From assembly GCA_008477525.1 (NCBI GenBank), contig SPDT01000004.1, forward strand, positions 1,860,001 to 1,924,000: a stretch of 64,000 nt of DNA, in the 5' to 3' direction. Shown piece by piece: positions 12,208-41,100 of this stretch; positions within the stretch are counted from its first letter, which is position 1; every line of letters starts with the position of its first letter. Made by a program: the position numbers and the translations under genes. Under the pieces are notes generated by a model. The model was given only the letters and a program-made list of their open reading frames with translations, was not told the origin of the DNA and ran no database searches. The stretch comes from Hypomyces perniciosus (taxonomy: Eukaryota; Ascomycota; Sordariomycetes; Hypocreales; Hypocreaceae).

Positions 12208-12476
12208 GTGAGTGGGATGGCCTTGTTTCTATATCTATTACATCCTTATAATGGATCTGTCAAAGGTAACATCAAATGTGGGGCAGTTAATGCTGTGGAA
12301 TCTAGTGACAATGCGGCTTTTACTGTTTTACTATTCCGAGCTTTGGTGTGATGGAGAGTCGCACAACAGGCTGGGCATTACGTGTCACAAGATCCGATCT
12401 TCAGAACCAACATCATAAGCGACTCCTCTACCTTTCCACAGAGTCTGAGGCCTATATCAATTAAAATCCCCTTCTA

Positions 12477-15776: not shown

Positions 15777-18700
15777 ATGTCTCCGGTCCTTGTCCAAACC
15801 GAATTCTTTGACTTGCCCATCAAGATACCTTGGCTCGTTCTAGGCCTAACAGGTTTTGTCCTATGGAAAACTGCGGCTATCTTTTATAGACTCTGGTTCC
15901 ATCCTCTCTCTCACTTTCCCGGTCCGTTTCTGGGTCGCGCCTCTAGCATCTATCGCTCGTACTGGTTTCTTCATGGCAATGAGCAGGAAAACCATCTTCG
16001 GCTTCATCGCAAATATGGTATGCTCCCCCGTCTCAATCAGGCTGGCGATCCATTCCATTTCCATCCACGCAGCCTTAGCTGAGTGGATGGACGTCCATTT
16101 CAGTCAACGTGCAGTGGAATGGGTGGAATGGACGCCCAGAGCAGTCGCATGGAATGGATGGAAATGGAAATGGATGCGTGGATGGGGTTACCTAAATAGG
16201 AAAGGTATCGCGCTAATAGATTAGTTACTATATATAGTACTCACCACAGTCACTGTAACCATCTCAATGATCACCAAGCAACAAAATTCATTATACAGGA
16301 TATCTCTCTTATTATACATAATTAAAACAAGCACTTTCTTAATGAGCCCAGGCTCTAGCCAGTGCGCTATAAATAAAGTCTAGAGAGGGATAGTACATAC
16401 AATTCGCCCACCTGTTACTTCACGAGCTTCTATAAAGCTCAGTTCGGCAAGCGGATCGGTATCCGATAACTCAACCTCTTCAAGAAGCTTCTCCACACTT
16501 CGAATATATCCCCCACGAAGCCACGATCTCACCGTCTGCGTCATTCCAATTGTACTAGCATCCAGATTTGCCCGGTCATCTCGAACCATTCTGCCGGCCG
16601 TAGAGAAAAGTCTCTCAACGTCAGCAGACATTGGAAGAGTAGAAAGAACATCAAGGGCCATCCGTGATAGGCGAGGATATTCCTCCCGTCTGTCGCACCA
16701 ATAGCTGATGGGATCCAGGATCCTCTGATCCGATTTATGTACGTCTCGAAACCAATCGTTATATTCATCTCCCACAGCTGACGAAGCAGGAGTGAATGGC
16801 GACTGTAATAATGCCGGCGCCTGACGAGACTCCTCGCAGTACTCGTTGAAGGGATTTCGATAAGTTCGCTGCTTCTTCATAACCGGTTCTCGGTCTCGAG
16901 AAACGACCTGCGGATCGTATTGAGACCTATACAGCCCCTCCACAAGGGACTTTGCAGTCTGGATCCATTCTGGGCGATCTGCCCATATGTCCTCAAAGTA
17001 TCCCCAACGATATGCTGGATGAAGCGCGACAGCTGCATAATAGACCGGTGTCTCATCAAGCCGCGAGTAGTACTCATCAAGTTTCTTCCAGCAGAGATTA
17101 ATATTGACCTTGAAGTGCTCAGGGTCGGGATATCGATGAGCAGCGGCCTTATATACCTCCATTTTATTAAGCAGGTACTCGTAGCCAAACATAAGATCCC
17201 AAGAGCATCCATATGCTTTAGTATAGCCATACTTTCGCATCCGCTGTCGACCGTCACCTTCAAGGGTAATTAAAACATGCTCAAAATGTTGGAGGACCTC
17301 GTTAAAAAGAGCGATAATATTCCAATCCTTCTCATCGAGTTTGTTGTCATCCCTGAGACAAAGTGGCATTTCACTCCTCGACTTCTTTCCCCTTAAAATT
17401 GACCCTTCCCACTCGTTTTTCTGCCTATACCAGAGTTCTTCAAGGAAGTCCTTCAGGAGAAGAGCGCGTCGGATCATGTAAAGAGTAGAAAGCCAACGAG
17501 TTACCACATCAGTAATGACATCTAGAGGCTTTTTTGCTTGTATTGTCGGATCCTCAGACTTCTCGAACGCGACCAACTGAAGAGACCGAAGGAGATTAGT
17601 TAGTAAGTCTGAACGATGAATCCAAACGACAAGGTTATGGAGTTTCCCAATAGGGCCTTTCCGTCTCCACATCTCATGGGCCTTCGCATTAAGCGCCTCA
17701 TTTCCAAGGATATCATCCTCAAATGCCTCAGAGTCATGGCCAAATAGCAGCGCTTTAACAGCAAGATTAAGGATATGGCCAAAGCAGCGTAATCGCCGGG
17801 TTTCTCCCTTAAAGCCCAGCGCTTTTCCGATTTCCTTCATCGCTGTATCGTTGTTGCTGGCGTTATCAAGTGTAAAGTATCCGACCTTCTGGGTTATATC
17901 ATAGCTCCGAAGGATATCGACAACATGAGCAGCAATATTCTCCCCAGAATGACGATCGACAAGCTCTGGAAGTCCAAGGACAAGTTTTTGTGGCTGGCCA
18001 ACGGTATCAAGAAAATAGCAAACGATTCCATATAGAGCATGGCGATTATTCGACCTCCAGCCATCGAACGCTATGTGAATCAGCCCTGGGGCTGCCGCCA
18101 ACACTCGCTTTATTTCCTCTATGTTTTCTTCGTACACCTTAAGGATGCGTCTGCGAACGGTATCGTGGGTGATATGTGCCTCGGTCGTCTTCACGAGGGG
18201 ATTGAGGTACTCGAAAACTGCGCGGAGGTACGGATCTTCGCTTTGTCGGAAGGAGGAATTACTGTTGATGATCCAACAGACTACCAAGCGCTGGAAGGCT
18301 AATCGATCAAAACGGCCGATGATCTGGTTGGCAATCTGCTGTTCTCGCGAGTTATATGTGTTCAGCTTCATCATCTCGGCGATATTCCTTGATGACGTAT
18401 TCTCTTTTGCTTTACTTGGCGGCTTCCGCCTGCCTGAAGGATCCCAGATACTGTGGTCGGTCCAGAGGTGGATCTCTGCGTTCTGTGTGCCATTCGAGGC
18501 AGTCGAGTGAGGTTTTTGCTTACTACTCTTTACGCAGACCTTGCAAACCCATCGCCGCTTTGTATCATCGTCGCTCTTCTCGATATCGTAACCGAATTGC
18601 CATATCCATGACGATATGGATGCGCAACGCTGGGATTGAGTATACCCAGGGAAGTATTTCCAAGGGAAAAGGTCCCACAGGTTCTCCTGGTCCTCCTGGG

Positions 18701-21057
18701 CCTGTATCTGAGGATGCATAGGGTTAATAAATTATGCTTATGGCGATTCCATTAATAAAAAATTCATATACGAAGTACATAGAACCCTTTCTCCTAATAG
18801 AAGTTCAACGCGCCTGAACGCGGTAACTAAGAACGCGAAATCTCCACGCTCCTGGCTACCAAAAAAAAAAAATCTTCCATAATCACTACTAACATATGTA
18901 AGAGCAAAATGTATAGTGATTTGTTAGTGGTGACTTAAGTTTAGCGTCCCTCTAGTTTTATACTAGGCTAAGTGATGCAGGTATTTTTATAGCTTAACTT
19001 GATGCGAAAACCTGACAGTTATTACGGAGTACATAAATACAGTTTTTAAAAAAGATATTTATTATAATTGGAATAGAGTTGGCCTTTCTAGCAATATACT
19101 AAAATATATATAATAAGATTCATTTCTCTCTATATAGCTATATATTAAATGCATATAGATTTAGTTTCGTTTACCTACTCTTCCAATGATATATAGGGTA
19201 TGTTGGCGGAGGGTCAGGTAGAACAAGCACGGAGTCTCTGGTAATGATGTCACTGACTTGGGCAATGGTAAGTATACTATTTTAGGGTGATGATTAAGCG
19301 CCCCCCTGCTTCCATTTCCATCCACGGGACCCTTCCGTGGATGGATGGATTATGTAATGGCAGGCGCGATGGAATGGATGGAAATGGATGCACGGGCCAT
19401 TCATTTCCATAAATGGACGCCCGTGGAAATGGACGTGGAATGGATCGCCACCCTGGTCTCAATGTCCATGTGCTCTTAAGCCAAGCCTGAGTCCCGACCT
19501 CCGTTACTAACCACAGCGTATTTCCAGGGCCTGTTGTGCGATACAGTCCCAATGGCCTCATCGTCAATGACCCAACACTCATTCCTGTCATCTATCATAT
19601 GAAAGCAGACAAGACAAATTTCAATGCAGCAAACTTCGGGTCTGTAACCACTTTCACAATGATGAGCCACAAGGACCACGTTGCATCAAAGAAAAGGATC
19701 AGCCATGCGGTAAGGCTTCGAACTTTAGGGCGATCCCAACTGGTAGAAATACATCAGCCAGCTAATGAAGATACAACAATATCCAGTATACAATGAAGAA
19801 CATGCTGATCTTTGAGACCGAGATCGATAATCGCCTGGATGAATTGATCGCGATCCTTTCAAGGGCCGCCGCGAAGGAGAAAGGAATCGACTCCCTATTC
19901 CATTTACAGTAGGTGGAACCAGTCAGCATCTCATCAAGCCAGAACGCTAACTCATCTCTCAAAGTTGGTTCAACTTTGACGTTGTCAGTCAGCTGTGTTT
20001 TGGCAAACCTTTTGGCTTCCTAAAAGAAGAAAGAGACGTCCATGGTTTGATCCAAAAGTTCGCAGATACTATCTGGCTTGGGGAATTCCTGGCTATTCAG
20101 GAGAACCTGGCTTGGTATGTGCGCTGTACCAAAATTGGGCGGTATCTGTTCATGGTTCGCCCTACAGATACCCGGGGCATTGGAGCGGTGATGGGACAAA
20201 GAGACCGAGTCGTCGACTCAATGGTAGGCCCCAACCGCGAGATCAAAGAGGAGCTGGTAGAAAATAGTCTCCTGTCCAGGTTTCTATCAGCACGAAATGC
20301 CGACGGTTCCCCCATGGACATGAGGGAGATCAAAAACGAGTTACTAACCGCGATGTTAGGCTCCCCTTCCCCTTACATTAGCACAAGTTTGAATTGACAC
20401 AATGAGTTAGACAAGCCGGGTCTGAAACCACGTCGCTCAATCTCGCCCAGATAGTCTTTCACATTGCCCGCAATGCCGACATTCAAAAAACCCTTCAAAA
20501 GGAACTTGACGACGCCGAGAACTCAGGAACCATTCCCTCGCGAGAATCCATCGTTAGCTACCACCAAGTGTCCCACTTACCCTACCTTAGTGCTTGCATT
20601 CGCGAATCGTTGCGTTACTGTCCCTCAAACGCACAAATTCCACGTGCATCTCCTGAGATGGGGCTGGAGCTTGACGGGAAATACGTGCCCCCAGGCACGT
20701 ATGTCTCCACAAGCGCATGGATTGTCGGCCGTGACGAAAAGTTGTATGGTGATGACCCCCATGTCTTCCGACCTACCCGTTGGCTGGAGGCATCACCAGA
20801 TCAACTTAAGCAAAGGGACAGGTTCGACATGATATTTGGATATGGGGCGAGGAAATGTCTCGGAAGGCATCTAGCGTCTATCCAACTTTGGAAGGTCATC
20901 GCAGAAGTATGTCTTTTAGAGCAATGGTGCAAACCGATCTCATGCTGATGTTTTTCAGATATTCCGTCGATTTGAGGTTGAAGTTGAGGACCAAAACTTT
21001 CAACCCTGTGGGATCCCATTGAACTGGCATGTGACCTTCCGCGCCCGAGAGGCATAA
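15777..21057 (+). CDS. Cytochrome P450 with a hAT transposon in intron 1
   Basis: I assemble six exons: 15777-16017, 19528-19709, 19787-19908, 19965-20354, 20411-20906 and 20959-21057, giving 509 residues with no stop. Exon 1 encodes the membrane anchor (IPWLVLGLTGFVLW) and hinge (FHPLSHFPGP), and ends in KYG. Exon 2 resumes PVVRYSPNGL, the expected continuation. Later motifs are I-helix AGSETTS, K-helix RESLR (ExxR), FRPTRW, and heme loop FGYGARKCLG with Cys461. Intron 1 is 3,510 bases because it contains a 3,418-bp hAT element; without it and one target-site copy the intron is 84 bases, with branch-like TTACTAAC and an AG at 19526-19527. Intron 4 is the least certain: I use GT at 20355 and AG at 20410; a GC-AG intron with slightly different ends would read MLAGSET. 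If intron 1 is not spliced, translation stops at 16082 after 101 residues. By position it is a tailoring monooxygenase of the cluster. Confidence 0.85.
16030..16037 (+). repeat. hAT target-site duplication, left copy
   Basis: GTCTCAAT precedes the left terminal repeat and is identical to 19456-19463. Eight bases is the length typical of hAT insertions. Confidence 0.92.
16038..16190. repeat. Left terminal and subterminal repeats of hAT
   Basis: After the 20-bp terminal repeat come several ATTCCATTTCCATCC / GGAATGGATGGAAATGG units in both orientations. They are likely transposase-binding sites, by analogy with other hAT elements. Confidence 0.7.
16380..18719 (-). CDS. hAT family transposase
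   Basis: This is a single frame of 779 residues from ATG at 18719. A BED-type zinc finger lies at about residues 35-95: CKVC, then H-x5-H in IHLWTDHSIW. The RNase H-like catalytic core includes the first Asp region IAFDGWRSNNRHALYG, the second Asp in FTLDNASNND, and the conserved CFGHILNLAVKALL helix. The C-terminal hAT dimerisation domain reads YPRLSRMALDVLSTLPMS, then ADVERLFSTAGRM with the catalytic Glu near residue 702. No stop or frameshift is seen, so the enzyme looks functional. It would cut and reinsert the surrounding element by a hairpin-forming hAT mechanism. Its transcription runs opposite to the host P450 gene, so antisense interference is possible. Confidence 0.95.
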   Translation of the reverse strand: MHPQIQAQEDQENLWDLFPWKYFPGYTQSQRCASISSWIWQFGYDIEKSDDDTKRRWVCKVCVKSSKQKPHSTASNGTQNAEIHLWTDHSIWDPSGRRKPPSKAKENTSSRNIAEMMKLNTYNSREQQIANQIIGRFDRLAFQRLVVCWIINSNSSFRQSEDPYLRAVFEYLNPLVKTTEAHITHDTVRRRILKVYEENIEEIKRVLAAAPGLIHIAFDGWRSNNRHALYGIVCYFLDTVGQPQKLVLGLPELVDRHSGENIAAHVVDILRSYDITQKVGYFTLDNASNNDTAMKEIGKALGFKGETRRLRCFGHILNLAVKALLFGHDSEAFEDDILGNEALNAKAHEMWRRKGPIGKLHNLVVWIHRSDLLTNLLRSLQLVAFEKSEDPTIQAKKPLDVITDVVTRWLSTLYMIRRALLLKDFLEELWYRQKNEWEGSILRGKKSRSEMPLCLRDDNKLDEKDWNIIALFNEVLQHFEHVLITLEGDGRQRMRKYGYTKAYGCSWDLMFGYEYLLNKMEVYKAAAHRYPDPEHFKVNINLCWKKLDEYYSRLDETPVYYAAVALHPAYRWGYFEDIWADRPEWIQTAKSLVEGLYRSQYDPQVVSRDREPVMKKQRTYRNPFNEYCEESRQAPALLQSPFTPASSAVGDEYNDWFRDVHKSDQRILDPISYWCDRREEYPRLSRMALDVLSTLPMSADVERLFSTAGRMVRDDRANLDASTIGMTQTVRSWLRGGYIRSVEKLLEEVELSDTDPLAELSFIEAREVTGGRIVCTIPL
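19297..19455. repeat. Right terminal and subterminal repeats of hAT
   Basis: Dense GGATGGA / GGAAATGGA / CCATTTCCATCC units run into the right terminal inverted repeat at 19436-19455, mirroring the left end. Confidence 0.7.
19456..19463 (+). repeat. hAT target-site duplication, right copy
   Basis: GTCTCAAT immediately follows the right terminal repeat, a perfect match to 16030-16037. Confidence 0.92.
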
Positions 21058-22035: not shown

Positions 22036-23153
22036 CAGGTACATGTACTCCGTACGGAGTACTTTATAATACTGGAGTAGTAGTGGTGGTAAAGCACACC
22101 CTCTACGGAGTACTCCGTACTTCGTACGGAGAGGAGAGTTGCCTAATTGGTTGAAATGCCGGGTCTACTTCGGGGGTATGTACCACCACCAACACCAGCA
22201 GGTGGTATTTATAACAGAGGGAAATCAATTAAAATGATATTAAATTTTGTTCTCAAAACAGTACGGAGTACGGAGTACTCCGTAGCTCATTCGATATTAT
22301 GTTGTATAATTTATTCATTTATTATCCAGTTTACAGAATGTGCCAACTAAATCCACTCAACATGCTTCATATGCTCGTGATCATGTACTGTACTCCGCTG
22401 TGAGGTACCTGTCACAGTATTGTAACAAGCGCTTTGCACTGTGCGGGAGAGATACTCCGTAGTGCCGACGTAACTGAGCGACTTCAACATCCTTGTTCTC
22501 TCCTCCTTATTTTGGTTGCCCCCTCAGATATTGCCTGCATCTTGGGCTACTGAGGTTACACTGCATGGTGAACCTGTAGCTTGGAGTAGTTCATATGTGC
22601 CTCTACTATTTATTACATTACATCGCATTGCCAAGCACGAATCCTCTCCGTCTCCATTATCGTATCTGCCGGGCAAAACCGCGATGTGATGATCGTGGTT
22701 TGGTATGTCACCCAGATGTGGGACACATCTGCAACCCACAGGCATGCGAATCTCAGCCAGCCACGAACAGCCGATGCCGCGTCATTAGATGAAGATTATC
22801 ACCGGTAGCTGATCTCGTTACTTCGTACTCTGGCTCGAAAAGGGGAGATGTGGAGTATCGGTAGATATGCATGCATCTGCAAAGGTGTTGCGGGACGACA
22901 CTTCGCGTCATTTTCACGATTGGAAACGTGTTGCGAGATGTTTCTGCTGCCAAGGTATGGATGTAGAGCAAGGCCGGGGCGCACAAATCGTGGGCTTGTT
23001 GTAAACGCGTGGTAGGTGAGTGACATCTGCAGGCGTCTTCTCTCCAAGGACGGCTCATGAACAGAGAAACCAACAGTGTTACATATTCGCGGTTACTATC
23101 GACCTATCACACAAGGCTCTTTTCTTTGTAGTTTTCTTCCTCCTCGGCGTCCA
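22036..23153. promoter_or_regulatory. NRPS upstream region with clustered palindromes
   Basis: About 1.1 kb precede the NRPS start. It is unusually rich in TACTCCGTA/TACGGAGTA units. These include the 16-bp perfect palindrome TACTCCGTACGGAGTA (22046-22061), a group at about 22103-22130, another at about 22260-22285, and single copies near 22453. The segment from about 22500 is featureless to me apart from short meaningless frames. It must contain the NRPS promoter, but no TATA box or factor site can be assigned with confidence. Confidence 0.45.
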
Positions 23154-26100
23154 ATGTTGCTGCAAAGAATCGTCGAACGCCGAGCGCGTCAGCACCCCCA
23201 TCGGGAAGCAATTGAGTATCAAGGCGCGACCATCACGTATGGAGAACTCAATGGATCTGCAAATCAGTTGGCCGCGTACATCAAACATGTCCGTGGGCTG
23301 AAATCAGGCGTAGTGGCACTGAGCCTGGACAAAGGGCCTTGGATGGTCGTAGCAGTACTCGGAGTGCTCAAAGCGGGATTGGCATGGGTGCCTCTCCCCA
23401 TCGATGCCCCGAGGCTACGCATCCAGAAGATTCTCGAGATTGCGAGACCTTGTCTGGTGCTCAGTTCACAAGATACGCAATATGTCGCCGATGGTTTGTG
23501 TACATCAGTAGTGCTTGATGACTTCGAAACGAAGAACGATCTTGCACAACAGTCAGCTGCGGATCTGTCTACTGCGGAAGATGAAATCAGCCCTAATGAT
23601 CTTTGCCATATCCTCTTCACCTCGGGCTCGACGGGGACTCCCAAAGGCGTCCTAATCGAACATCAGGCAGTGGCTCACAATGCGCAACTTCTGGCGGACC
23701 TCTTTGGTCTGGATGAAAATACCAGAACATTGCAATTTGCCGCGTACACCTTTGACATATTTGGCCTGGACATGTTCATGACCTTTACTGTTGGCGGGTG
23801 TTTGGTTATGGATACTTTCTCGAATATGATGTCTGATCTGACTGGTTTCATAAACCGAACTCGCATCAATTACGCCCAGCTCACACCTACAATCATTTCC
23901 CTCATAGACGCCAAAAACGCATCCAGTCTTCGTGTTCTGGCGAGCTCCGGTGAGCCTATGACGGCAGAAATCATTCACCAATGGAGCCGTCGCGTTCGGT
24001 TGATCAATGCCTATGGACCGACTGAGACCATCGTTTGCACCGTTCAAGACATGAGTGCAACCAATTCAGTCAAACCACAGTTTATCGGCACTGCGCTTCC
24101 TGGCCTGGAGGTCATCTTGATGCGGGAAGGGTGCACAGAGGAGGTTCCCCCAGGCACTGTTGGGGAGATCTGCGTTGCTGGCGTTCAGATATTTCGTGGA
24201 TATCTCGGAACCGACCAGAGCCTTTCTGGATTCTTTCCTTATAAATCCCAGAAGTTCTATTGCACTGGCGATTTGGGCGTTCTAACTTCGATATCTGATT
24301 CGGAGAGCACAATTTGCTGTCTGGGTCGAAGAGACGGACAGGTAAAGGTCCATGGGGTGCGGGTAGATCTTGGCGATGTTGAACAGGCCCTAGGAAGTTG
24401 CGAGGCCACTCAACACTGCATTGCCCTGATCCCCAAGGTTGGCCTCACCCATGGTAGACTTTCTGCTGTTTTGTCAGTCAATCATCCCGGGCCATGGGAG
24501 CAGGTCGCGACAGGAGTGCCTGAGATGAATCTTCTTCACCCCACTCAATCTACACAGCAAGCAATTCTGAGAGAATTGGTAGGCTGGGTGCAAAAGATTT
24601 TGCCCCCTCAGGCTGTACCAAGCACCTGGTGGATTGTCGACAAGTTGCCACTCACTATTAGTGGTAAACTTGACCGCATGTCTATCCAAGGATGGTTGGA
24701 GACAATTGCTGACCAGGATTATACGCGATTTATACATTCTTGGAACACCAACGAAGAAGGCGCTACCCTTCCTGACGGTAGAGATTCAGCACTACAGCGA
24801 CAAATGGTCGACTTGTGCGGCAGAGTCTTGGGTTTAAGTCCTGAGGCAATAAATCCCCAAATATCGCTCCTACAGCTTGGATTTGACTCTCTGGCAATCA
24901 TCCGACTAGTATCCTTAGCTCGCCACCAGGGAATCAGTCTGACCGTGCAACAAGTGCTCCGTGAAAGCTCGATAGCGCAACTCAGTGTGTCCGTATCTGC
25001 CGCGCAGCCTGACCTGGAGTCCACAGACGGCCTCCCTGATGAGCCCTTCAGTCTGGCACCTGTAGGCGTTGATTTACTGGCATTGAGAATCTCCATTGCC
25101 GACCAATGTCACGTCGAACTTGAGGACATTATGGATGTTTATCCTTGCACCCCTTTGCAATCAGGTATGATGGCTCTGGCCGCCCGAAGCTCCAACGCCT
25201 ACATTTGTGAAATGAGCTTCGTTTTATCACCAACCGTTGATCAGAGTCGGTTTCAGAAAGCGTGGGAGCAACTACTATCCGCAATTCCTCTCCTACGAAA
25301 TCGCATCGTGCACGATCCTGAAACCAGTCGTCTGTTGCAAGCTACAGTTCGTTACCAAGCGTCATCCTATGGTGATGATGCCTTCAATGCTCCCATGTCA
25401 TTCGGAGACACACTGTGCAGAGGCGCATTTACATGGAATGCGACCATACAGAAATGGATATTCAAACTGAAAATTCATCATTCTTTGTTTGATGGCTGGA
25501 GTAAGAGCCTGATGTTGCTTGAGCTCAAAAGGATCTACGACACGGGTGAACACTCTGCTGCGGCTACTTTTTTCAAGATATTCATCAAACACCTCATTCA
25601 GGATGTCAAATACAATGAGACTGTGCATCTTTCTTTTTGGAGAGATAACCTGGATGGCTCTACGGTCACAAATTTCCCTCCGATTCCTCCGTCGTGGAAG
25701 GGAGAACTCATGGCACATGAAGGTCTTGCCCACAAAGTCAACATGGACGTGTCATCTGTAGCGAGAAAACACAAAGTCACAGCTGCTACAGTAATACAGG
25801 CGGCCTGGGCCATCGTTCTGGGCAATCATGCCGCTACAGATGATGTTGTATTTGGTGTTACCCTTTCCGGCCGTGATGCTCCTATAAAGGACCTTGAGTT
25901 TACTATTGGCCCAACAATGGTGACCGTTCCTTACCGAGCTCGCTGGGACAGGTCGGTCACCTTGCGCGAGTTCCTGCAGAACCTCCACCAACAGTCTATT
26001 GACATGATCCCACATAAATACTATGGATTACAGAACATTGGAAATGCAGGGCAGAGCGCGAAGAATGCATGCTCCTTTCGTTGCTTGGTGGTGATTCAGC

Positions 26101-29100
26101 CTGAGGATACCGCAGCCGATGATCTCTCTCATTTCATGAACGAGGAAGAATACTTCAGCTCCGACATGCTCCGGACCTATCCCGTCACCATTGAGTTCAT
26201 ACTAAACCCAGCCAACCTAGAGATAAAAGCTCACTACGATGCATCTGTCATGCCAAAGAAGGAGCTGCTCTGGGTGCTTCGTCATTTCGAGTCGGCCTTG
26301 AGTAGAATTGACTCGGCAGACCCCCTCATACCTGTCCCCGATATTGAAATCATCGGCAAAATCGACATCGAACAAGCCCTAGGTTTCAACGACATCTGCC
26401 CACCGATTATTGATCGGTGTCTCCATGAGCTCATCCAAGACGCAGCTCGGAAATTCCCAGATCACGTTGCCATCCTTCAACAGTCACCAGCGAAGAGTCT
26501 TTCCTATCAAGAACTTGATCAAGCATCAACGAATCTGTCTAGGCGCCTTCAGCGCCTCCATGGTATTGGACCAGGGGAGATAGTACCGATTTGCTTTGAG
26601 AAATCCGCCCTAGGAATCATTGCAATGTTAGCTATTCTCAAGGCTGGAGCTGCGTATGCGCCACTAGAGGCAACTCAACCTATCCAGCGCCTATCATACA
26701 TGACCAAACTTGTGGAGTCAAGGCTTGCACTCTGCTCATCCGCAACTTCTTCAAAAATGAGGGAGGTTGTAGATCAGGTTTTGGAGATCAATGAGAACTG
26801 GCTTTTTGATGAACCAGACCATGTCATATCGCCCAAAGAAGACCGTCAAGCGTCGCCGGGTGATTTTGCCTTTGTTTTCTTCACATCAGGCAGTACTGGT
26901 CAACCGAAAGCCATAGCCTCTACACACTCCGCCATTAGTACAAATGTGGTTCACTATGGGGAGTTGCTACGCCTCGAGCCGGGAGCCCGTGTATTGCAGT
27001 TCACCTCCTTTACCTTTGATATGTCTCTCAAGGATATTTACAATACCTTACTGTCTGGAGGGTGTATATGCCTGCCTAGTGAACAAGATCGCTTGACGTC
27101 CTTGTCAGAAGCCATGCAGCAAATGCATATCGATGTCGCCTTTCTGACTCCAAGCATTGCAGACCTCATCAACCCTGATGACGTCCCTAAGCTCCAAATC
27201 CTGGATCTAGGTGGCGAACGGGCCACTGTGTCTGTTGTCCGCAAGTGGGCTGTACGAACGAGGTTGATCAATTCATATGGCCCTACAGAGACCGTCTGTT
27301 GTCTGACAGCTTCCGATCGCCTGAGAGAAGACTCTGACCCGGACAATATTGGCCATGGAGTTGCCGGGCGGACATGGATCGTTCAAAGAAACCCCAACGG
27401 CCCTCTCCTTCCAGTACCGATTGGATGCATCGGTGAGATTGCCCTCTCCGGCTTCACTGTTGCTCAAGGATATCTCCACGACCCAGTGAAAACTGATGAA
27501 TCGTTTGTTGAGCAACCCCCATGGATGCAACCTGATGCCGATTCCCGTCTGTATCTCACCGGCGATTTGGGCCTTCAAAAGCCGGATGGTAGCATCAAAT
27601 ACATTGGTAGAAATGACCGACAGGTCAAGATTCACGGAATCCGTATTGAGCCAGCCGAAGTGGAACATCATCTTCGACAACTAGGTGGAATTTTCTCTTC
27701 GTCTGTTGTTGAAGCTGTTCATCTTACAGATCCACCCTCGTCGCTTTCTCTTGTTACATTTGTCTTGGTCCAAGATCCAGACGGACAGACATCGCTGGAT
27801 TCACGACCCATGTTTGCTGGTGCCGATTCTCTTCCGGAAGCATTCGATGCAGAATGCCGTGGTGTGCAAGATCGCCTGACAGAAAAAGTACCAAGATATC
27901 TGGTACCCAGTGTCTTCGTTCCAGTCAACTATTTTCCGTTGACCGTGTCTAGTAAAACAGACCGCAAAACTCTTCGAGAAACATTTGAGAAAGACACGGA
28001 GCGCAGTCGGTACACCACAACAAAATCTGTGCATGATCCTGTGCACTCGCCTCCTCAGACCAACCGAGAGCGTCTTCTCTGCGATGCCTGGAAGGATGTG
28101 CTTACCGTGAACAAGGATTTTGGGCTCGGTGACGACTTTTTCCGAGTTGGAGGCGATTCCTTCACCGCGATCAGGCTGGTTCTCCTCTGTAAGAAGCAAG
28201 GGCTGGAGATTTCCGTTGCACAGATCTATGGGAACTCGACTCTTGGGAAAATGGCAGCTATCGCAGTAGACGCGTCTGATGAACAGTTATCAATGAAGGC
28301 AGAGAGTCTGACTCCTTTCTCGCTGGCAACGGAGAATGTTGAAGCTCTTTTGGACGAAGTTTCACAAATTTGCAATATCGACGCTCAAGAAATTGAAGAC
28401 GTGTATCCGGCATCGCCATTCCAAGAAGGATTGGCTGCAATCAATTTGCACACGAAAGCAGCCTATATGGCTCAATGGGTTTACTCGTTGCCAAGTGCAA
28501 CGGATCTGGAGCGGCTCCAGGACGCCATGGAGATTGTGATTGCTCGGAATCCGATCCTTCGAACGACTTTGGCTCATACTTCCAGAGGCACTGTTCAAGT
28601 GGTGCTCAAGTATCGTTTCCAGGCTGACAAGGAATCACAATGGAGGATGCAACAACCGGATAGTCAAGACGGAGAGGAGGTGCGCATGGAAGGCAAAAGA
28701 CTATTCAGCTATTGTTCATTCCGTAATGAGGAAGGTAAAGCGTATCTGCAAATTCACATACATCACGTTCTCTATGACGAATGGGTGATGGACTTCTTAT
28801 TGGACGACTTGGCGTACAACTACGGTCATCCGGGGAGCGAACGATCAGGAAGGCCCAGTTACGCCAACTTCATCCATCATCTCACAAGCATAGATGCCGA
28901 AGCCTCGGCCACTTTCTGGAGACGCAACTTGGAACATGCTGGGGTGTTGGAGTTTCCTCGTCTCCCTTCATCTAACCGCCAGCCCCAGACAAATGCCGTA
29001 GTTCAGTCATCCACCTCAATATCACTGAAGCATTTAAAGCACGCAGCAGTAACTCCAGCTGCTGTCGCTGCTGCGGCGTTGACTCTTCTTTTGTCATCAT

Positions 29101-32100
29101 ATGGCGATACCGAAGATGTTATTTTTGGTCTGACGCTTTCCGGGCGAGATGTTGCCGGCATGGAAGAAGTGGCTGGGCCAACTATTTCCACTCTTCCACT
29201 CAGACTACAGACCAACGGGAGACAGAACACTGTCGACTTTGTCAGAGATGTGCAGTCAAAAATGCGTGCAGTACAAAGTTTTCAGCATTTTGGCTTACAA
29301 AAAATTGCACAGCTGAATGGAGAAGGACCTCGAAATGCGGGTGCATTCCGGACCTTGCTTGTCGTACAACAAGTATCGACGGTCTCTTCGAAAACCGATG
29401 CCCTTCATCTCACCACTGTTGATGAAGAGACTTCCATGTCCCTGAATTACGGTCTCGTAGTAATTCTGACGACCGATCAATCGGCTGGACGTGTAAAACT
29501 CCGAATCGAATACGATTCGGATTGCGTTGTCGAACAACAGGCACACCGGATTCTCTGCCAGCTTAACCAGATCGTTGGCCAACTGTCTTCGGTTCAAGGG
29601 ACTGTTGACATGATCAATATGGTTCCCAAGGAAGACTTGAAAGAAATTTTGGAGTTGAATCATCCCAAACTCGCCCTGACAAAGCTCGATCAGTGTCTGC
29701 ATCACATATTCGAGGAACGAGCGGTGCAGATGCCAGATAAGATAGCAATTGAGTGCAGAGGGCCCCTCGGCAGTCTGACGTACCGTCAACTTGACGAGTA
29801 TGCCAACAAAACTGCGCATTACTTGATACGCCATGGTTCTTCCTCCAAATTCGTACCCATCTTCTTCGGGAAATCCTCATTGGCCATTGTGGCAATGTTG
29901 GCTGTCCTCAAAACCGGGCGTGCATATGTCCCAATCGACCCATTGATGCCAGAATCCCGTTTGACAAGTATACTGCAAGACCTGGGATCTGGTGTTACCG
30001 TCTTGACGGAAAAGTCCCCTAGCCACATGTTTTCTGGGCTGAATTGCCTAGTTTTGGACTCGGCGCTCCTGACCGATCTGGACATATCTACACCTTTAGA
30101 CTTGCCAGTATCAGCTTCTGATAATGCTTATGTCCTGTACACATCAGGGAGCACTGGGAAGCCAAAAGGAGTCCTCGTCAGTCACGGTTCGATAGTCATT
30201 GCACTAGTATCTCAAGTGGAGGTCGCCGATCTTGACTTCGAGTCTCGAGTATTGCAGTTTGCATCTTTCATGTTTGACATTAGCATCTTCGACATATTTG
30301 GTTCATTTATTGCTGGGGCATGCGTATGCATGCTGAGCGATGACGAAAAACGTTCAGGCGCTCTTGCTCAAGTCATCAGTTCGCTACGAGTCAATATCTT
30401 GAACATCACCCCGAGCGTCGCGCAGCTACTGCGTTCTGCTGATGTTCCAACAGTGAAAACGATGATTCTTGGAGGCGCACCAATCCCTCGACATATTGTT
30501 GAGGAGTGGACCAAAGATGGTGTTCGTCTCATCAATGGGTATGGTCCGACAGAGGCTTGTATCTATGCGGCAATGGATCCAAATGTTTCCCTGGATACTC
30601 ATGGGACGATTGGTGGATCCACTGCGTGCAGCAACTGGATCGTTGATGCTACAGACCATAACAAACTGGCTCCATTTGGTTGCACTGGAGAACTTGTGAT
30701 TTGCGGTCCAGCAGTCGCCGATGGGTATCTAAACGACCCTGAGAAGACGGCAGGGGCTTTTGGAGTCGATCCGCCATGGCTCTCATTCCAAGAACAGAAG
30801 GGTATGCGCTACTACCGAAGTGGAGATCTTGTTCAATATCGTCCCGACGGTTCTATCGCGTACTTGGGACGGAAGGACACACAAATTAAGATTCGTGGGC
30901 AAAGAGTGGAAGCTGGCGAGATTGAGTCAGCTATACGTGATATCAGCTCATTCGATGCCGTGGTTGAGCTCCTCCCTGGAGACAATCTCATTGCTTTTGT
31001 GAAGCCAGACCAAGCTGCTCCAGCTGAGCCCGGCCAAATACTATTGCCCTTGGAGACCATCCCCATTGAACTAATTGGCGACCTCATCCACAAGCTACGA
31101 TCCCGTCTGCCCGTCTACATGGTACCCTCGGTCTTCGTTCCAGTAGGGACGTTTCCCACGACGACCACATCATTCAAGATTGATCGAAAGGCATTACGTG
31201 CTGCCCTGGATGGACACATCGACACCTATAGGAAAACGAAGGGACAAATCAAGAGGACACCGCAGACGACGTCCCAGAGGCAAATGAGGGATCTTTGGGC
31301 CAACGTGCTCAATATTGCAGCAGAAGAAATTGGTCTGGATGACGAAATTCACACACTTGGTGGAGATTCGATCAGTATGATACGATTGCTTTCTACAACA
31401 AGGAAAATGGGGCTGCGACTTAATGTTGGCGATGTGAATCAGTTTATAACACTGGAGGAGATGTCGCGAGCATTAGATTCCTCCGAATCAGTCCAAGTTG
31501 AAGAAGATGTACCGCCCCCGTTTTCTTTGGTCAAAGAAATGTCCAAGGAACAATGCGCGAGCGATGCGGCAACGAAATGTGGTGTAAATCCAAATTCCAT
31601 CGTGGATGTATATCCTTGCACATCTCTGCAGGAAGGTCTCATGGCTTTGAGCTCGAAGGAGCCAGGGTCATATCTGATGCAACATCCATTTGAGATCCTC
31701 GAGAGCATTGACCCAGCCAGGCTTGAGTCTGCACTTCGTCGCGTGTGGCAAAAGGAGCCTGTTCTCCGCACCCGCATATTTATCGGCGCGAGACTTGACA
31801 GTCTGCAAGCAGTGATCAATGATCAAGACCTCCCGTTCAAAGTTTATCACGGTACTCTAGACGAACACATACAGAGTGACAGGCGAATCCCATTCGAATA
31901 CGGAAAGCCCTTAAGCCGATTCGCCCTGGTGTCTAATGATCAAGGTCAAAGATACTTGGTCATATCCCAGCACCACGCAATAAGCGACGGATGGACGACA
32001 AACCTGCTGGTGGAGGCAATAAAGCATGAATATGCCCAGAAACTTCAGGACGATCGATGTAGTCTGGTAAATCGCATACCATCGTTCGTCAAATTTGTTA

Positions 32101-35100
32101 GTGATATTCAGAATTCGACAGATGCCGCACGCTTTTGGAGAACAGCCTTGGACGGTGCCCCTGCTACAAATTTCCCATCCCTGAAGAAGAACACTTTTCA
32201 AGCCGCTGCGTGGAGCAACACGTCATGTGAAATTCCAAGTTTGTCTAGGGTGTCTCTTCCCACTCTGCTCGAAGCTGCATGGGGTTTCGTGCTTGGTAAA
32301 TATTCTGATACGGATGACGTCTGCTTTGGCGTTGTCCGATCAGGAAGGATAGCACCCATTCCAGAGATTGAACACATGATGGGTCCAGCAATCGTCACGA
32401 TTCCCAGGCGTCTCAAGCCGCAGTCCGCACTCAATGTCTCAGAGTATCTGGAGCAAGTACATTCTCTTGTAAACCAGGCTGTGCCATTCGAGCACTTTGG
32501 CCTCCAGAACATACGCACGCTGAGCGAAGATGCTAGGAATGCCTGTGATTTCCAGACATTACTCATCATCCAACCGGAAGAAGAGTCGCATGAAGCTCCT
32601 AGCCAGCTCTCCCTCAAAGCTTTGGATGCTGATTCAATGCTTGGCACTTATGGCTTGTCTGTTACCTGTCAACCCCACAGAGACGGAACCTTGTCGATCC
32701 ATGTGAACTACGACGATACTGTTGTTTCTGAGGCAGAGGTTCAATGGATATCCTATCATCTCGTACAGACTCTCTCCCAACTTACCAAAATAACGGACAA
32801 GTTAATAAGTGATGTTGATATCTGCGGGGAGCTAGATAAAAGACAAGTTGCTACTTGGAACACCCCAACAGTCGAAGCGACAAACGAGCGTGTTGAGACA
32901 GTGTTCCAGCAGCACCTTGTGCAATGGGCTGACCTGACTGCTATCGACGCAGATGATCGACAGCTGTCATATGCAGAGCTTAACCGAGCGGCAGATAGCA
33001 TCGCGCAAGTGCTCAATAGCCATGGCGCAGGCCCTGGAGATTTGATCCCTATCTGCATGGAGAAATCTGCGTTGATGATCGCCACACTGTTGGGCATCTT
33101 CAAAGTGGGTGCAGGCTACACTCCTCTTGCCATCGACAATCCAATCGACCGTTCAAGGAGGATATTAGATCATGGATCCGCCCGCATCCTCGTCTGTTCG
33201 CCAAAACAGGAAGAACTCTGTCGTAACTTGATGCCGGGCGCAGTTGTCGTTCTGGATTGGGACTCCCTACAAGACTCTGCCTCCTCCGGAATTGATGTCC
33301 AACAGGCACAAGCGACTGATCTCGCCTATGTCATGTATACTTCTGGCAGCACCGGCACCCCGAAAGGAGTGATGCTGCCGCATGTCGCAGTCACTACTAC
33401 TCTTTTGGCACAAGGGAAACGTCTGGGCTATGAGCCAGGTACAAGAACCCTTCAATTCTGTTCATACACTTTCGATTGCAGTGTGACTGAGATATTCATG
33501 ACCTTGCTGCACGGTGGCTGTCTCTGCATTCCGACAGAGGAGGAAAGATTGACATCACTCATCGACTTTATTAACAAGAAGAATATCGGCATGGCAGTTC
33601 TAACGGCCACAGTTGTCTCTACCATGCTTCAACATCCTTCCCACGTGCCAGGATTGTCAACGCTCATGCTCGTTGGTGAAGCCATGACTCAGGTTATCGT
33701 GGACAATTGGAGCGACAAGGTCCGTGTGATCAATGACTACGGTCCTACAGAGGCCTGCATCGACGCGGTGGTCAACATGGATGTGAAGCCAGATACCCAA
33801 CCCGGCAACATCGGATATCCGATCGCAGCATACGTCTGGGTTGTCAACAAGGATGACAGGTCTAAATTGGCACCAATCGGTTGCCCTGGAGAGTTGTTGA
33901 TTTCAGGGCCTACACTCGCTGTTGGTTATCTTAAAGACAAGACTAAAACTGATGCCGTCTTCTTGGACGCGTCACGATTTGATTGGGCTCGACCGGATGA
34001 CCCCCGCCTCTATGCCACGGGAGATATAGTTCGTCAGAGCCCAGATGGATCTCTCATCTTTATTTCACGGAATGACACCCAGGTGAAGTTGCGTGGCCTT
34101 CGAGTAGAGTTGGGCGAGATTGAATTCTATCTTGGGAAGTGCAAAGGCATTACGGCCGCTGTTGTAGATATGGTCAATGACAAGAACAGTGGTGATCCTG
34201 TGCTTGCAGCCTTTGTCACGATAGTGGGCCGTGAGATGGAGGCTGCCCAGCCAATCGTACCAGATGATAGTATTCGCCAGACTACTCAGGCCGCACTCAA
34301 CCTCCTGAGCACGAGCATCCCGAGGTATATGATGCCACAAGTCGTCTTGCCGTTGGGGAAGATACCCTCGACGACAAGTGGCAAAACAGACAGGGGTACT
34401 CTCAGACGAGTATACGAATCAGCAGCACAGAAAGACCTCATCGCCCACTCGGCCACAGCCTCATCCTCATCAAAGAGACCACCAGAAAACAACACTCAAA
34501 CAATTCTACAACACCTGTGGGCCGAGGTTCTACATCTCGATGCTGAGGCAATCGGGCTCGACGACGACTTCGTCATGCTGGGCGGAAATTCCATTTCGGC
34601 TATAAAATTGTCCTCCGTTGCGCGAGATAAGGGATTCTCTCTGCCCGCACAATCAATATTTCAGAATTCAGGCCTCGAAAAAATGTCGCTCCATATGAAT
34701 ACGGCTAGACATCTGATTGACCCAGAGGAGCCACACGCGATGAAACGAACAAACACGGCTTTTTACCAGTCGCAAGTGAAAGAAACATATGGTATTGCCA
34801 TGGAAGAGATCGAGGACATCTATCCGTGCACACCACTCCAGTCCGGTCTGATGGCACTTACGCTTCGTATGCCAAAGGCGTATGTTGCTACGGAGACGTT
34901 TCAATTGTCCGGCTCTATTGACCTTGATCGATTCAAGAAGGCCTGGGAATTGGTGTACCAGAAACACGAGACGCTGCGTACCAGGCTGTGCCAAGTAAAT
35001 GACGATGATGGATACAGCGAGCTTGTCCAGGTTGTCTGTTCTGGTGGCAACATGACATGGTCTGTTGTGGAAACCTCGAACGTGCCACCTGGGAATCAAG

Positions 35101-38100
35101 ACGCGGGAGTAATAGGCCTCGGCACTCCTCTCTGTCGCTACAGCCTGCTACGAACTCCGGAAGGATACCGCTTCCAATTAACAAGACATCACTCAATATA
35201 CGACGGATGGTCCTCTAAATTACTATGGGATGACCTGGAGTATGCTTATGTGAGTGGCCAGAGTCCGCCGCCAAGACCACCGTTCCGCTCCTATGTCCGG
35301 TATTTGCAAAGTATGGAGAGTGACGCTGCGATGGGTTTCTGGAAAGGAGAGCTCCAGGGATACTGTGCCGAGCACTTCCCTAAGCTTCCCCCAGGCAAAT
35401 TTTCGCCAGAGGTCAATTCATCTTTAGAATTAGCCATTGAGATGGACCCCAACATCTCAAGGACAAAGACCCTGACATTTGCCAGCGTTGTTAGGGCTGC
35501 CTGGGCCCTGGCTCTGTCGGTCCTGGGCAGATCGCCCTCCCAGACTCACGACATTTGTTTTGGTGCTACAGTGTCCGGGAGGATGGCTCCAGTTGCTGCG
35601 ATCGAAGAAATTGCAGGTCCTACAATAAGTACAGTTCCGGTTCGTGTACATGTCGACATGAACGAGCCAGTAGGTCAATATCTCAACCGGGTCAGTGATC
35701 ATGCATTGGCTACGGCACCGTTCGAGCACATCGGCCTCAGCGACATTGGGAAAATTAGCGAAAACGCAAAAGCGGCATGTCAGTTCAGAAACATATTGGT
35801 GATCCAACCCCCAGACTCTCAAAGCGAGAGTATAATGGAAGGAGTACGCCAAATAGTCGACTCTAGCCAGATGTTGCAATTGTATGGGATCGTCATGGAG
35901 TGCAGAGAAGCCGCCGACAACAGTGGTTTTTACCTCGAGGCTAGTTTCGATGAAAGTCTACTGACCAAATCCGAGATGCGCATAATCCTTCGACACTTTT
36001 CACGAATCATCACACACCTCTACGACTCAGGACGAAATGGCACGTCAGTAGGTTACCTATTACGAGACATGATCACGGTTGAAGACTACGATCAAGTACT
36101 TTCGTTCAATGGGCCTGCCCTTCCGCAGTCTACCTTGTGCCTTCACGAACTTGTGGAAAAAAGTGTTCAGCTTCACCCGCACCGCCTTGCAGTGCTCGCG
36201 CATGATCGAGAACTCACATACAAGGAGCTGGACGAATGCTCTAGTCGGCTCGCTGCACATCTTCGACAAAATTGTGGCGTTCGCCTAGAAACTTTGGTTC
36301 CAATATGCTTTGAGAAGTCCAGTTGGATGATCATTGCGATGTTGGGGGTGTTGAAAGCTGGGGGAGGCTACGTTCCGCTTGATCCATCCCATCCAACAAT
36401 GCGACTGAGACACATTGTCAACCAAACCAATTCGAATCTTGTCCTTGTATCTGCTGCGCAAAATCACCGTATTTCCAAAGATATTGGTGTAAACACCTTT
36501 GTTGTGGACTTCCCAAGTCTCTCGTCTTGCCCAACAAACACAGATACGGTGGTGGAACTACCAGGCCCACAGCATATCGCCTACGTGATATTCACATCTG
36601 GGAGTACTGGCAACCCCAAAGGGGTGGTCATGGAACATGGAAGTGTTAGTTTGAGCATGATGGAGCATGGAAGGGTACTTGGGTATCAGCGTGAGAAGGG
36701 AATAAGAACACTGCAGTTCAGCACCTACACGTTCGATGTTAGTGTCGCAGAGATCTTTGCCACATTGGCCTTTGGTGGTACAGTCTGCATCCCAACGGAA
36801 GAAGATCGCCTGAGCAATCTCCCTGGCGTAATCTCAACGATGAGAGTGAGCAATGCTTTTATAACTCCGACGATGGCCAGAACCATTCAACCAGACGAGG
36901 TTCCCACTCTCGAGGTTCTTTGCCTTACAGGAGAGTCTGCGACACCTTCACTCATACAAACGTGGACGCCGACGGACAAATTCTCAAAGAGGAAAATTCG
37001 GAATACATACGGGCCTACAGAAGCTGCCGTGCACTGTGCTGCCGCGGACATGACGAAGCCTAATTCCATTCCTAACAACATTGGGTCACCTTTTGGTGGG
37101 CAATTGTGGATTGTGGATCTTGAAGACCACACGAGATTGCTGCCGGTGGGATGTATGGGAGAATTGGTGATCTCGGGTGCAACTCTTGCTCGAGAATACT
37201 TACATCTTCCCGAAGAAACGGCAAAAGCCTTTATCAATGATGTGTCATGGTTCGAGAATACTGAGCCTCGAAGGATATACAAAACAGGCGATATGGCGAG
37301 ATTCACTGGTGAAGGCACTATTGAGTTCCTGGGTCGAAAGGGACATCAACAAGTCAAGCTTCACGGCTTGCGAATTGAGTTGGGCGAAATCGAGTCCGCC
37401 ATACACTCATGCGATAGCGCTTTCTTGAATCTGGTCGTTGAAAAGGTTGCCATTACCGCAAATGAATCACTCGTGGCTTTCTTCCAGACTGCGGAAACGA
37501 CGTCAGCATGCGACCCTGATTCGCAGCATATCCTCGCACCCTTACTCACACAAAACTTGAAGTCTTTCATTCGAAATGTCGAGAAATCTCTCTTGAAATT
37601 CCTACCAAGTTATATGATCCCATCAATCTTTTTGCCCGTAATAAAGTGGCCGCGGACCACTTCTGGCAAAACGGATCGCCAGCTGCTCAGGACGTTGGCC
37701 AGCGAGCTTACTACTGTGGATGTGGACTTGTACCGAGGCATCAATGGTGTCACTCATAAAGCGGCCACCAATGGTTCGAAAGAGGAATACAACGGTAGTA
37801 CTGAAGGGAAAGGTGCAAATGGAATTAAGAATCACGCCGTTGCCAGGTCTCCGTCAGACTTGAAAGGTCTGGTGGCCAAGCTTTGGCGACGAACACTGCG
37901 TCGTGATTCCAGTTTTCAGCCTGACTTGCAGGACGACTTCTTCCGCATTGGGGGCGATTCAGTTTCGGCCATTTTCTTGGTTGCAGAATTCCGTAAGGAG
38001 AACTTTCACGTCACCGTTAGTGATCTCTACAAAATGAGGACACTGGCAGACATGGTTGATCTGATAAGCCACGACGACTACGGTGTCGATGCTGGGCAAA

Positions 38101-41100
38101 CAAATCTATACTCTTTAGTGCAGGTCAAGGGCGAACAACTTCGGTCTCTCCGGAATGACGCCGCAGCAGAGCTTGAAGTAAGCTTGGACTCAATTGAAGA
38201 CATCTATCCATGCACGCCCCTTCAGGAAGGCATCATGTTTTTATCAGAAAGGGTTGCAGGATCATATCATGGTCGCTTCCGTTTGCTGATGCCTCGCGAA
38301 CTTGACATGGAGAGAGTGTACCTCGCCTGGCGGAGGTTGGTCGAGTTGCATGAAATTCTTCGCATAAGGATCATCTTTGACCAGAATCTCGGGAGCTTAC
38401 AAGTTGTCTTGAGCCCTGCATCTCATTTTCAGGTCATCCAGAAAACAAATGGAACGGACGGAACTCGCTTTGGCTATGGACTTCCGCTCTACAAACATCG
38501 CTTAATGGCGCAGAATGATAGGATCTACCTTGAGCTGGAATGCCACCACTCCATGTATGATGGTTGGTCGCTGCCACTCCTGGTTCAAGATTTTCACAGT
38601 CTATACCAAGATCTCAACTTTTCCCCAGAGCATATGCCCTTCAAGGATTTCGTTGCCTACCTCTCTGACTCGTCTGTTGTCAAAGCAGAAGAAGAATTCT
38701 GGAACAGGCACTTGGAGGGTGCAGTCGTCTCCGATTTCCCCGAGCTTGTTGGTCGCGCACATCACGCTATTTGTGCGACTGCATATCATAAGCACAGCAT
38801 CTCGGCAGTCACTAAAAATGATTCTCTAGATGTCACGATAGCAACAATACTAACCGCCGCTTGGTCATTTGTGGTATCCAAGTATACCGGATCCGATGAC
38901 GTATGCTTTGGCCTGCTGCTCTCAGGACGCAATGCCCCAATTCCAGGAATCGATAGTATGAGGGGACCAACGATCAACACGGTCCCCTTCAGAGTGATAT
39001 TAGACCCGACAAGTACGACGACTGACATCCTCGGCCATGTCCAGGCTCACATTATTGACATGGTGCCCCATCAATTCAGGAGCCTCGCAAAACTTCGCAA
39101 AGCTTTCCCAGACGGTCATCGCGACTTTGGAAGCCTGTTGGCAATCCATCCGGGAATGGATGAGCAGCATGATGGGAACGATTTCGGTCTTTCATCAGTG
39201 CCCTCAGAACAGAATGAAGTCGCAGCCATCTTCGGAGAACCATACCCCTTATTTTTGGAAGCAAACTTCGACGACGCTGGCAACGTGGTACTCGGTGCTC
39301 AATATGATCCAGAAATCCTGTCAATTGATCAGTTGAAGCGTATTCTCAACCAGTATGAGGTTTCCATTCGTCTATTGGCTACCAAGGGCCCTACTCCTCT
39401 AACGGAGATGTCGCTACTTTCTGAATTTGACGAAAAATGCCTTCTCGACTGGGCTGGGAAGCCTGTCCAGGTAGAAAATGTCTGTGTGCATGAGATGATT
39501 CAACAGATCGCTGTCTCTTATCCCGATCGCCAAGCTATCGAAGGCTTCGGCGAGTCGGTGACATATGCGCAGCTAGAACAACGGGCAAATTCACTGGCCT
39601 ACAATTTGCTACAGCTTGGCAAGAACATAGGGCCAGGAGTGACAATTCCGGTTTGGATGGAGACCTCTCCTGCTGCCGTTGTGGCACTACTAGCCATCCT
39701 CAAGCTAGGGGCAAGCTACGTGCCTCTTGATTTCCGTCTTCCTGTCACGCGAGCCCAATACATTGTCAGTGATGTCGGCGCCGAGGTCATGCTTGTCTCA
39801 CAAGCAAAGCTTGATACCGCGTGCCAACTAGTGCAGACAAACCTGGCCGTTGTCGAGGTCAACGACAAACTGATGGAAAGCTCTCATAGTGTACCACCAA
39901 GCCCGGCCCGGTCCACCGATCTAGCCTATGTCATTTATACGTCTGGGAGCACAGGCAAGCCAAAGGGAGTGATGATGGAACACTGGGCACTCACGGCTAC
40001 CATTAAGGAACAAGCTGCCACGTACGAGATCGGACTTAATACCCGTATGTTTGGCCTCGCCAGTCTTAGTTGGGATCCCAGCCTGTTAGAGATCTTTGTG
40101 CCCCTCTCTCACGGTGGCTGTTTGTGCATTCCAACGGAACATGAGCGCACACATGACTTGGTTGGTGCTATTAACCGACTTAAGGCAGACCAAATCAGCA
40201 CGTCGCCCGCCGTAGCCTCTTTAATCGATCTCAAAACAACGCCTACTGTCACAGCCATCAGCCTTGGAGGTGAATCGATTCGAGAAGAAAATATCCGGAA
40301 TGCCTACGAGGCCGGCGTTCGTCTCTTCAACATTTACGGCCCGAGCGAGGCTTGTATCGACGCAATTGTTCACCGGAATGTCATACCTGGTGTTGGTTTG
40401 CAAAATATCGGCCAGCCCATGTCAAGTCAAGCTTGGATCGTAGACCTTCGCAACCCACACTTGTTGGTGCCTCCAGGTTGTGTTGGTGAGATCGCGCTAT
40501 CTGGGACCCTGGCCCGTGGTTATTTAAACGATCCAGTGAAAACAGCAAAGAGCTTTTTGAAGGACTGTCCGTTTGCCTCGCCGGTTTACCTAACTGGTGA
40601 TCTGGGCCGTCACGATATGGATGGATCAATTCACTTTCTAGGACGGAAAGACCGGCAGGTCAAGCTGAATGGTCAACGAGTGGAGCTGGGCGAGATTGAG
40701 AACGCAATAAAGACTCTGTGCCCAGAGATGGAAGTTGTGGTCGATTACTTCCCTGTTGAAGCCAAAAAGTTGTTGGCTGTCTTCTTCTTCCTCAAACGAG
40801 ATGGCCGTTCCGCATCCCCAGTCGAAGTCGTATCCCAAATGCGATCAGATTCTCAGGAGTTTCAACATCTGCAATCACAATTAAAGGACATGTTACCCAG
40901 ATATATGGTGCCGCGCATCTTTGTTACTCTCTCGCGTTTACCTCTATCGAATGCGGACAAAGTTGATTTCCAAGTACTCAGAGACGCATATACCAAATGG
41001 GCCAATGAGTCTGTGGAACAAAACGGGAAGCCGGACGAACCAGAGGCGGCGCCTCTGACCCAAAACGAAGCCGTATTGCGGAATCTATGGGCGACAGCAA

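What the first reader, a model, noticed from the sequence alone, without database searches (positions are those of the whole stretch)
16018..19527. Complete hAT transposon housed inside intron 1 of a tailoring P450
Removing the 3,418-bp element and one GTCTCAAT copy restores an 84-base intron with a TTACTAAC-like branch site. The P450 coding sequence is intact on both sides and joins KYG to PVVRYSPN. Unspliced mRNA gives a 101-residue stub. The P450 may thus be active only if a 3.5-kb intron, very long for these fungi, is spliced; this could switch the cluster between two products or act as a metabolic toggle on excision.
Basis: partly seen in the sequence, partly recalled or inferred. Interest (0 to 1): 0.9.

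Follow-up and report, generated by a model that had tools for sequence, protein, structure and literature searches.

The report
Young jumping gene in P450 intron
A complete, very recently copied hAT jumping gene sits inside the first intron of a fungal P450 gene beside a giant peptide-synthetase gene; the description is right, but the insertion looks like one chance hit of a recent genome-wide burst rather than an evolved switch.

Summary
A 3,418-bp hAT element (16038-19455) with 20-bp inverted ends (19 of 20 match) and the 8-bp duplication GTCTCAAT lies in intron 1 (16018-19527) of an otherwise open six-exon P450. Minus the element and one duplicate the intron is 84 nt. In 4 of 5 homologues that align to both sides, exon 1 and exon 2 meet exactly there; the fifth has an in-frame stretch there that looks like the same intron left in. 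Element ends occur there as 41 facing pairs; 22 copies read in full differ by 4.6 substitutions on average. The burst is so young that an intact P450 says little about whether the intron is spliced. A second copy sits in an intron of another P450-like gene; 2 of 32 sites in introns is about what random insertion would give. I found no evidence for a product switch. Most likely the element lowers correctly spliced P450 mRNA, reversibly if it excises; silent splicing remains possible, and RNA is needed. Verdict: real, well described, mostly ordinary.

The parts
15777..16017 (+). P450 exon 1 (80 aa plus one base; probable membrane anchor and FPGP hinge)
   Evidence: aligns to 5 homologues at 49-52% identity
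16018..19527 (+). P450 intron 1, now 3,510 nt; 84 nt without the element and one duplicate
   Evidence: GTATGC donor, CTAAC branch, TTTCCAG acceptor
16030..16037 (.). target-site duplicate GTCTCAAT, left copy
16038..19455 (-). hAT transposon, 3,418 bp; transposase antisense to the P450
   Evidence: TIRs and TSD; 41 facing end pairs in the genome
16038..16057 (+). left terminal inverted repeat CAGGCTGGCGATCCATTCCA
16383..18731 (-). transposase frame, 783 codons from stop to stop (first ATG at 18719, about 779 aa, read by eye); hAT dimerisation domain near the C end
   Evidence: PF05699 E 2.6e-14; Hermes transposase E 8.1e-6; tied with 17 other copies at the top score
19436..19455 (-). right terminal inverted repeat CAGGGTGGCGATCCATTCCA
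19456..19463 (.). target-site duplicate GTCTCAAT, right copy
19528..19709 (+). P450 exon 2
19787..19908 (+). P450 exon 3
19965..20354 (+). P450 exon 4
20411..20906 (+). P450 exon 5, with AGSETT and FGYGARKCLG
   Evidence: PF00067 E 1.2e-36 for the frame 20406-20948
20959..21057 (+). P450 exon 6 with stop
23061..43013 (+). large NRPS frame, 6,650 codons from stop to stop, the cluster's likely core gene; product unknown
   Evidence: best listed hit 71% identical, searched with residues 600-1100 only (P0121)

Best explanation
One member of a very young hAT family with intact frames inserted into the short intron 1 of a P450 that probably decorates the product of the neighbouring NRPS (shown: anatomy, copy number, youth, single-copy P450; inferred: cut-and-paste and the tailoring role). 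The P450's own splice signals survive, but the donor-to-branch distance rose from 66 nt to 3,492 nt, with acceptor-like and AATAAA sequences and an antisense gene in between. Most likely many or most transcripts stop or mis-splice inside the element, so the P450 is strongly reduced though its coding sequence is undamaged (inferred). Because the duplicate lies in an intron, excision with a small footprint would leave the exons untouched, so the allele is in principle reversible (inferred from general, recalled hAT behaviour).
For: Complete element with TSD; 41 end pairs, and 37 of 59 listed transposase matches full length without stops; mean 4.6 and at most 14 substitutions between 22 copies, 1 private to this copy among the 22; P450 without a near paralogue in the genome; 8 acceptor-like sites, each followed by a stop within 4 to 144 residues, and 3 AATAAA on the sense strand inside the element; ascomycete introns average 68-134 nt.
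Against: No RNA. The 8 acceptor-like sites are fewer than a first-order Markov expectation of 11.9, so the element is not enriched for decoys. Donor, branch and acceptor are intact. The minimum-energy fold pairs the two inverted ends and puts donor and branch 23 steps apart, but 6 shuffled elements gave 21-91, so this argues neither way.
Confidence: 0.6

Rival explanations
1. Silent passenger: the 3.5-kb intron is spliced well enough and the P450 is fully active.
For: The gene's splice signals and exons are intact; a second copy is present in an intron of another P450-like gene; the best fold pairs the inverted ends.
Against: The intron is about 26-52 times the mean intron length of seven ascomycetes; youth means that persistence is no evidence; the fold is matched by shuffled controls.
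Confidence: 0.27
2. Evolved switch or toggle: excision or regulated splicing lets the cluster choose between two products.
For: The element has an open transposase frame and sits where excision would not touch codons.
Against: Insertion probably too recent to have been shaped by selection; intron hits at chance level; I found no second product or regulatory signal, and did not search for one beyond the anatomy.
Confidence: 0.05
3. The P450 was already dead before the insertion.
For: None found.
Against: All six exons open, heme motif FGYGARKCLG present, four short GT-AG introns, 50% identity to the Xylaria homologue over all of exons 2-6.
Confidence: 0.05
4. Assembly artefact: a repeat collapsed or placed wrongly here.
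For: High-copy near-identical repeats are where assemblies go wrong (general knowledge).
Against: Perfect 8-bp duplication of local intron sequence, and one substitution private to this copy among the 22 read.
Confidence: 0.03

Closest known systems
Restless, hAT element of Tolypocladium inflatum, and Restless-like transposases
   Same: Fungal hAT; copy-number expansions reported (26 in T. inflatum, 55 in Fusarium oxysporum), and copies near or inside peptide clusters (PMC3688495, PMC6367777, passages seen). Nine of the 120 listed homologues are named 'restless-like', at 43-51% identity.
   Different: No direct alignment to Restless was made. The nearest named relatives here are a Zarea fungicola protein (86%) and a Fusarium oxysporum f. 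sp. cubense 'putative AC transposase' (81%); ours sits within an intron.
Restless beside the destruxin cluster of Metarhizium
   Same: hAT at a peptide cluster, linked there to loss of product (statement in PMC6367777, passage seen).
   Different: 5' flank with cluster degeneration; here the NRPS frame and the P450 exons are open.
Fot1 in an intron of niaD, Fusarium oxysporum (recalled; the listings did not show that paper)
   Same: DNA transposon in a short intron of a fungal gene, recalled as loss of function reverting by excision.
   Different: Fot1 is a Tc1/mariner-type (pogo) element of about 1.9 kb (recalled).

Membership tests
hAT superfamily | 8-bp target-site duplication | tested here: met
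   GTCTCAAT twice; 24 of 32 sites examined have matching 8-mers, 8 do not
hAT superfamily | short terminal inverted repeats | tested here: met
   20 bp, 19 match
hAT superfamily | hAT C-terminal dimerisation domain | tested here: met
   PF05699 E 2.6e-14; Hermes E 8.1e-6, best stretch residues 673-731
hAT superfamily | DDE catalytic residues | tested here: inconclusive
   the stretch 221-279 aligned to the Hermes core scored -2.5 bits; triad not mapped
hAT superfamily | active excision and reinsertion | not testable with these tools
   youth of copies only
Restless family within hAT | closest relation to Restless itself | not tested
   only homologue names seen
spliceosomal intron of fungal P450s | GT-AG ends, branch site, conserved position | tested here: met
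spliceosomal intron of fungal P450s | short length usual in ascomycetes | tested here: not met
   3,510 nt against published means of 68-134 nt
spliceosomal intron of fungal P450s | is actually removed from mRNA | not testable with these tools
   no RNA data

The most novel reading that the evidence does not exclude
The element's inverted ends pair in the pre-mRNA and loop it out, so that the spliceosome sees an almost normal short intron; a hAT family could then hide a 3.4-kb autonomous transposon in working genes, here in introns of two P450-like genes, and each excision or mis-splicing event would change the metabolite mix.
Probability: 0.08. Interest if true: 0.65.

Novelty: new member of a known kind. 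Interest (0 to 1): 0.3.

Why it matters
If the intron is spliced, it is a clean test of how long an intron a filamentous fungus can remove. If it is not, it is a fresh, coding-intact, possibly reversible loss of one tailoring step, which could explain why a strain makes a simpler peptide than its cluster predicts. The young family also offers a natural before-and-after comparison between isolates.

Tried and rejected
Empty sites: the tool says this genome has no relatives in the held set, so no empty allele could be compared. A TIR-pairing explanation for splicing was folded and is kept only as the bold case, because 6 shuffled elements gave 21-91 steps against 23. Enrichment of decoy acceptors was tested and is absent (8 against 11.9 expected). 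A preference for introns was tested and dropped. That scan's top candidate was L043/044, the only 1 of 32 sites to pass the cut of 150 nt open on both sides; the window's own site did not pass and ranked fourth, because the scan takes the first AG after the branch. In the null 116 of 2,808 random window points passed, so single results from it are weak. For L043/044 a first script looked for the wrong donor string and missed it; I read the donor by eye from that printout and one search gave the same model. A coding-score scan found only one of the window P450's exons, so 'non-coding' labels at other sites are soft. Nine paper searches (titles and abstract starts only) listed no case that I recognised of a hAT in an intron of a fungal tailoring P450; subscription journals are mostly not held, and I saw passages of three papers only (PMC4832277, PMC6367777, PMC3688495).

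Full report
What is there. The window belongs to an unnamed fungal genome of 44.0 Mb in 23 contigs. It holds an NRPS frame of 6,650 codons at 23061-43013 with repeated condensation, adenylation and carrier domains, a second P450 frame at 12477-14117 and an aminotransferase frame at 11014-12228. The P450 in question runs from ATG 15777 to its stop at 21055-21057 in six exons; its introns are 3,510, 77, 56, 56 and 52 nt, all GT-AG. Intron 1 holds a complete hAT element, 16038-19455, between two copies of GTCTCAAT. The transposase lies antisense to the P450, is open over 783 codons from stop to stop (about 779 aa from its first ATG, read by eye), carries the hAT dimerisation domain and has weak similarity to Hermes there.

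Is the intron real? The P450 search with exons 2-6 listed 31 proteins; I compared the first eleven, P0242-P0252. Exons 2-6 align to all eleven and exon 1 to five. In four of the five (P0243, P0244, P0245, P0247) the two alignments stand exactly one residue apart, the G of KYG or EYG. In the fifth, P0246 of Cordyceps militaris, 26 residues stand there instead of one and look like the same intron left in the gene model.

Is the P450 part of the cluster? P0243 is named Xylaria cf. heliscus on a 420,065-base contig, as is NRPS hit P0189 (45% identity); P0247 and NRPS hit P0129 (35%) are both Sphaerosporella brunnea on a 106,423-base contig. The NRPS search used residues 600-1100 only and listed the best 120 of 1,849 hits. 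The best-scoring other P450 in this genome is 29% identical over residues 48-413, and none of the other listed matches outside this gene exceeds 39%, over short stretches; a DNA search with the part downstream of the element finds only itself.

A scan with the 20-base end found 88 matches, which I sort into 41 facing pairs and 6 singles; the reversed-pattern control gave 0. One pair (C9:850486-857174) encloses two transposase frames. The transposase search listed 59 matches, 37 of them full length and free of stops, 18 at the same top score, this copy included. Of the 32, 24 have an 8-bp duplication and 8 do not. Among the 22 copies read in full the mean pairwise difference is 4.6 substitutions and the maximum 14; the window copy has 3 differences from the majority, one of them private among the 22. 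At recalled fungal rates of 1e-9 to 1e-8 per site and year one private change means roughly 0.03-0.3 million years (upper limits 0.14-1.4 million); in that time the 1.5-kb coding sequence would be expected to gain about 0.45 neutral changes, at most about 2. So the intact exons do not show that the gene is still used.

Chance or design? A published table for seven ascomycetes gives 1.7-2.2 introns per gene, mean lengths of 68-134 nt and 259-369 genes per Mb (PMC3688495, passages), which I multiply to 4.9-6.0% intron. If that holds here, 32 random sites predict 1.6-1.9 intron hits. I found two: this one, which was given to me because it stood out, and L043/044, where the same element splits what reads as a 53-nt intron (donor GTGAGA, branch CTGAC, acceptor AACCAAG) of another gene; the fragment on one side matches the P450 family at 2.3e-10, the fragment on the other side matches no Pfam family. 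Other copies interrupt coding frames, for example an NmrA-like gene with Pfam matches on both sides (L035/036), or adjoin a methyltransferase-like fragment that scores below Pfam's cut-off (L020). The intron scan is rough and may have missed some, so two is a lower bound.

How it probably works. The spliceosome must now bridge 3,492 nt from donor to branch, instead of 66. Within the element, sense strand, are 8 acceptor-like sites (11.9 expected), each leading to a stop within 4 to 144 residues, and 3 AATAAA. The minimum-energy fold pairs the two inverted ends and shortens the donor-branch path to 23 steps, but six shuffled elements gave 21-91, one of them shorter. I judge reduced, largely mis-processed mRNA most likely, without having measured it. 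Since the duplicates lie in the intron, a footprint left by excision would not touch codons.

A further point. Of the six loci with a single end, L031 aligns nearly end to end with the element and differs at 236 of 3,396 sites, 143 of them C to T or G to A and mostly in the CpA context (41 of 63 C to T before A; 45 of 80 G to A after T), which resembles repeat-induced point mutation (RIP); L034, a partial copy, leans the same way (43 of 64, with 5 of 10 and 17 of 33 in that context); L029 holds a 101-column fragment, and L030, L032 and L033 gave no stretch of 60 or more. The 22 young copies have only 0-11 substitutions each against the majority; of these 56 in all, 30 are also C to T or G to A, and their context was not tested. 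Two cytosine methyltransferase loci are present. So the older copy was heavily mutated and the young ones are not; whether the burst escaped RIP or has simply not met it yet is open.

Verdict.

Noticed in passing
L043/L044 (G000:C9:1055879-1059296): A second copy of the same hAT inside what reads as a 53-nt intron of another P450-like gene (Pfam match on one side of the insertion only).
   Followed up: partly
L031 (C8:2599782-2606782) and L034 (C20:10990-17990): Older copies with RIP-like C-to-T change, while the 22 young copies read in full carry at most 11 substitutions each (30 of 56 in all are C to T or G to A): the burst has escaped RIP or not yet met it.
   Followed up: partly
L014 and L015 (C4:5608715-5622242): Two opposite copies about 6.7 kb apart share an 8-mer only at their inner ends and one substitution (alignment column 2284), which they also share with L018; possibly a non-standard transposition or rearrangement.
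   Followed up: no
L023, L024, L027, L041/042, L045/046, L053/054: Six further sites without matching 8-bp flanks, possible ectopic recombination between copies; no exchange partners among the 32 sites read. L041/042 is the compound pair of the next item.
   Followed up: partly
C9:850486-857174: Two transposase frames in opposite orientation within one facing pair of element ends.
   Followed up: no
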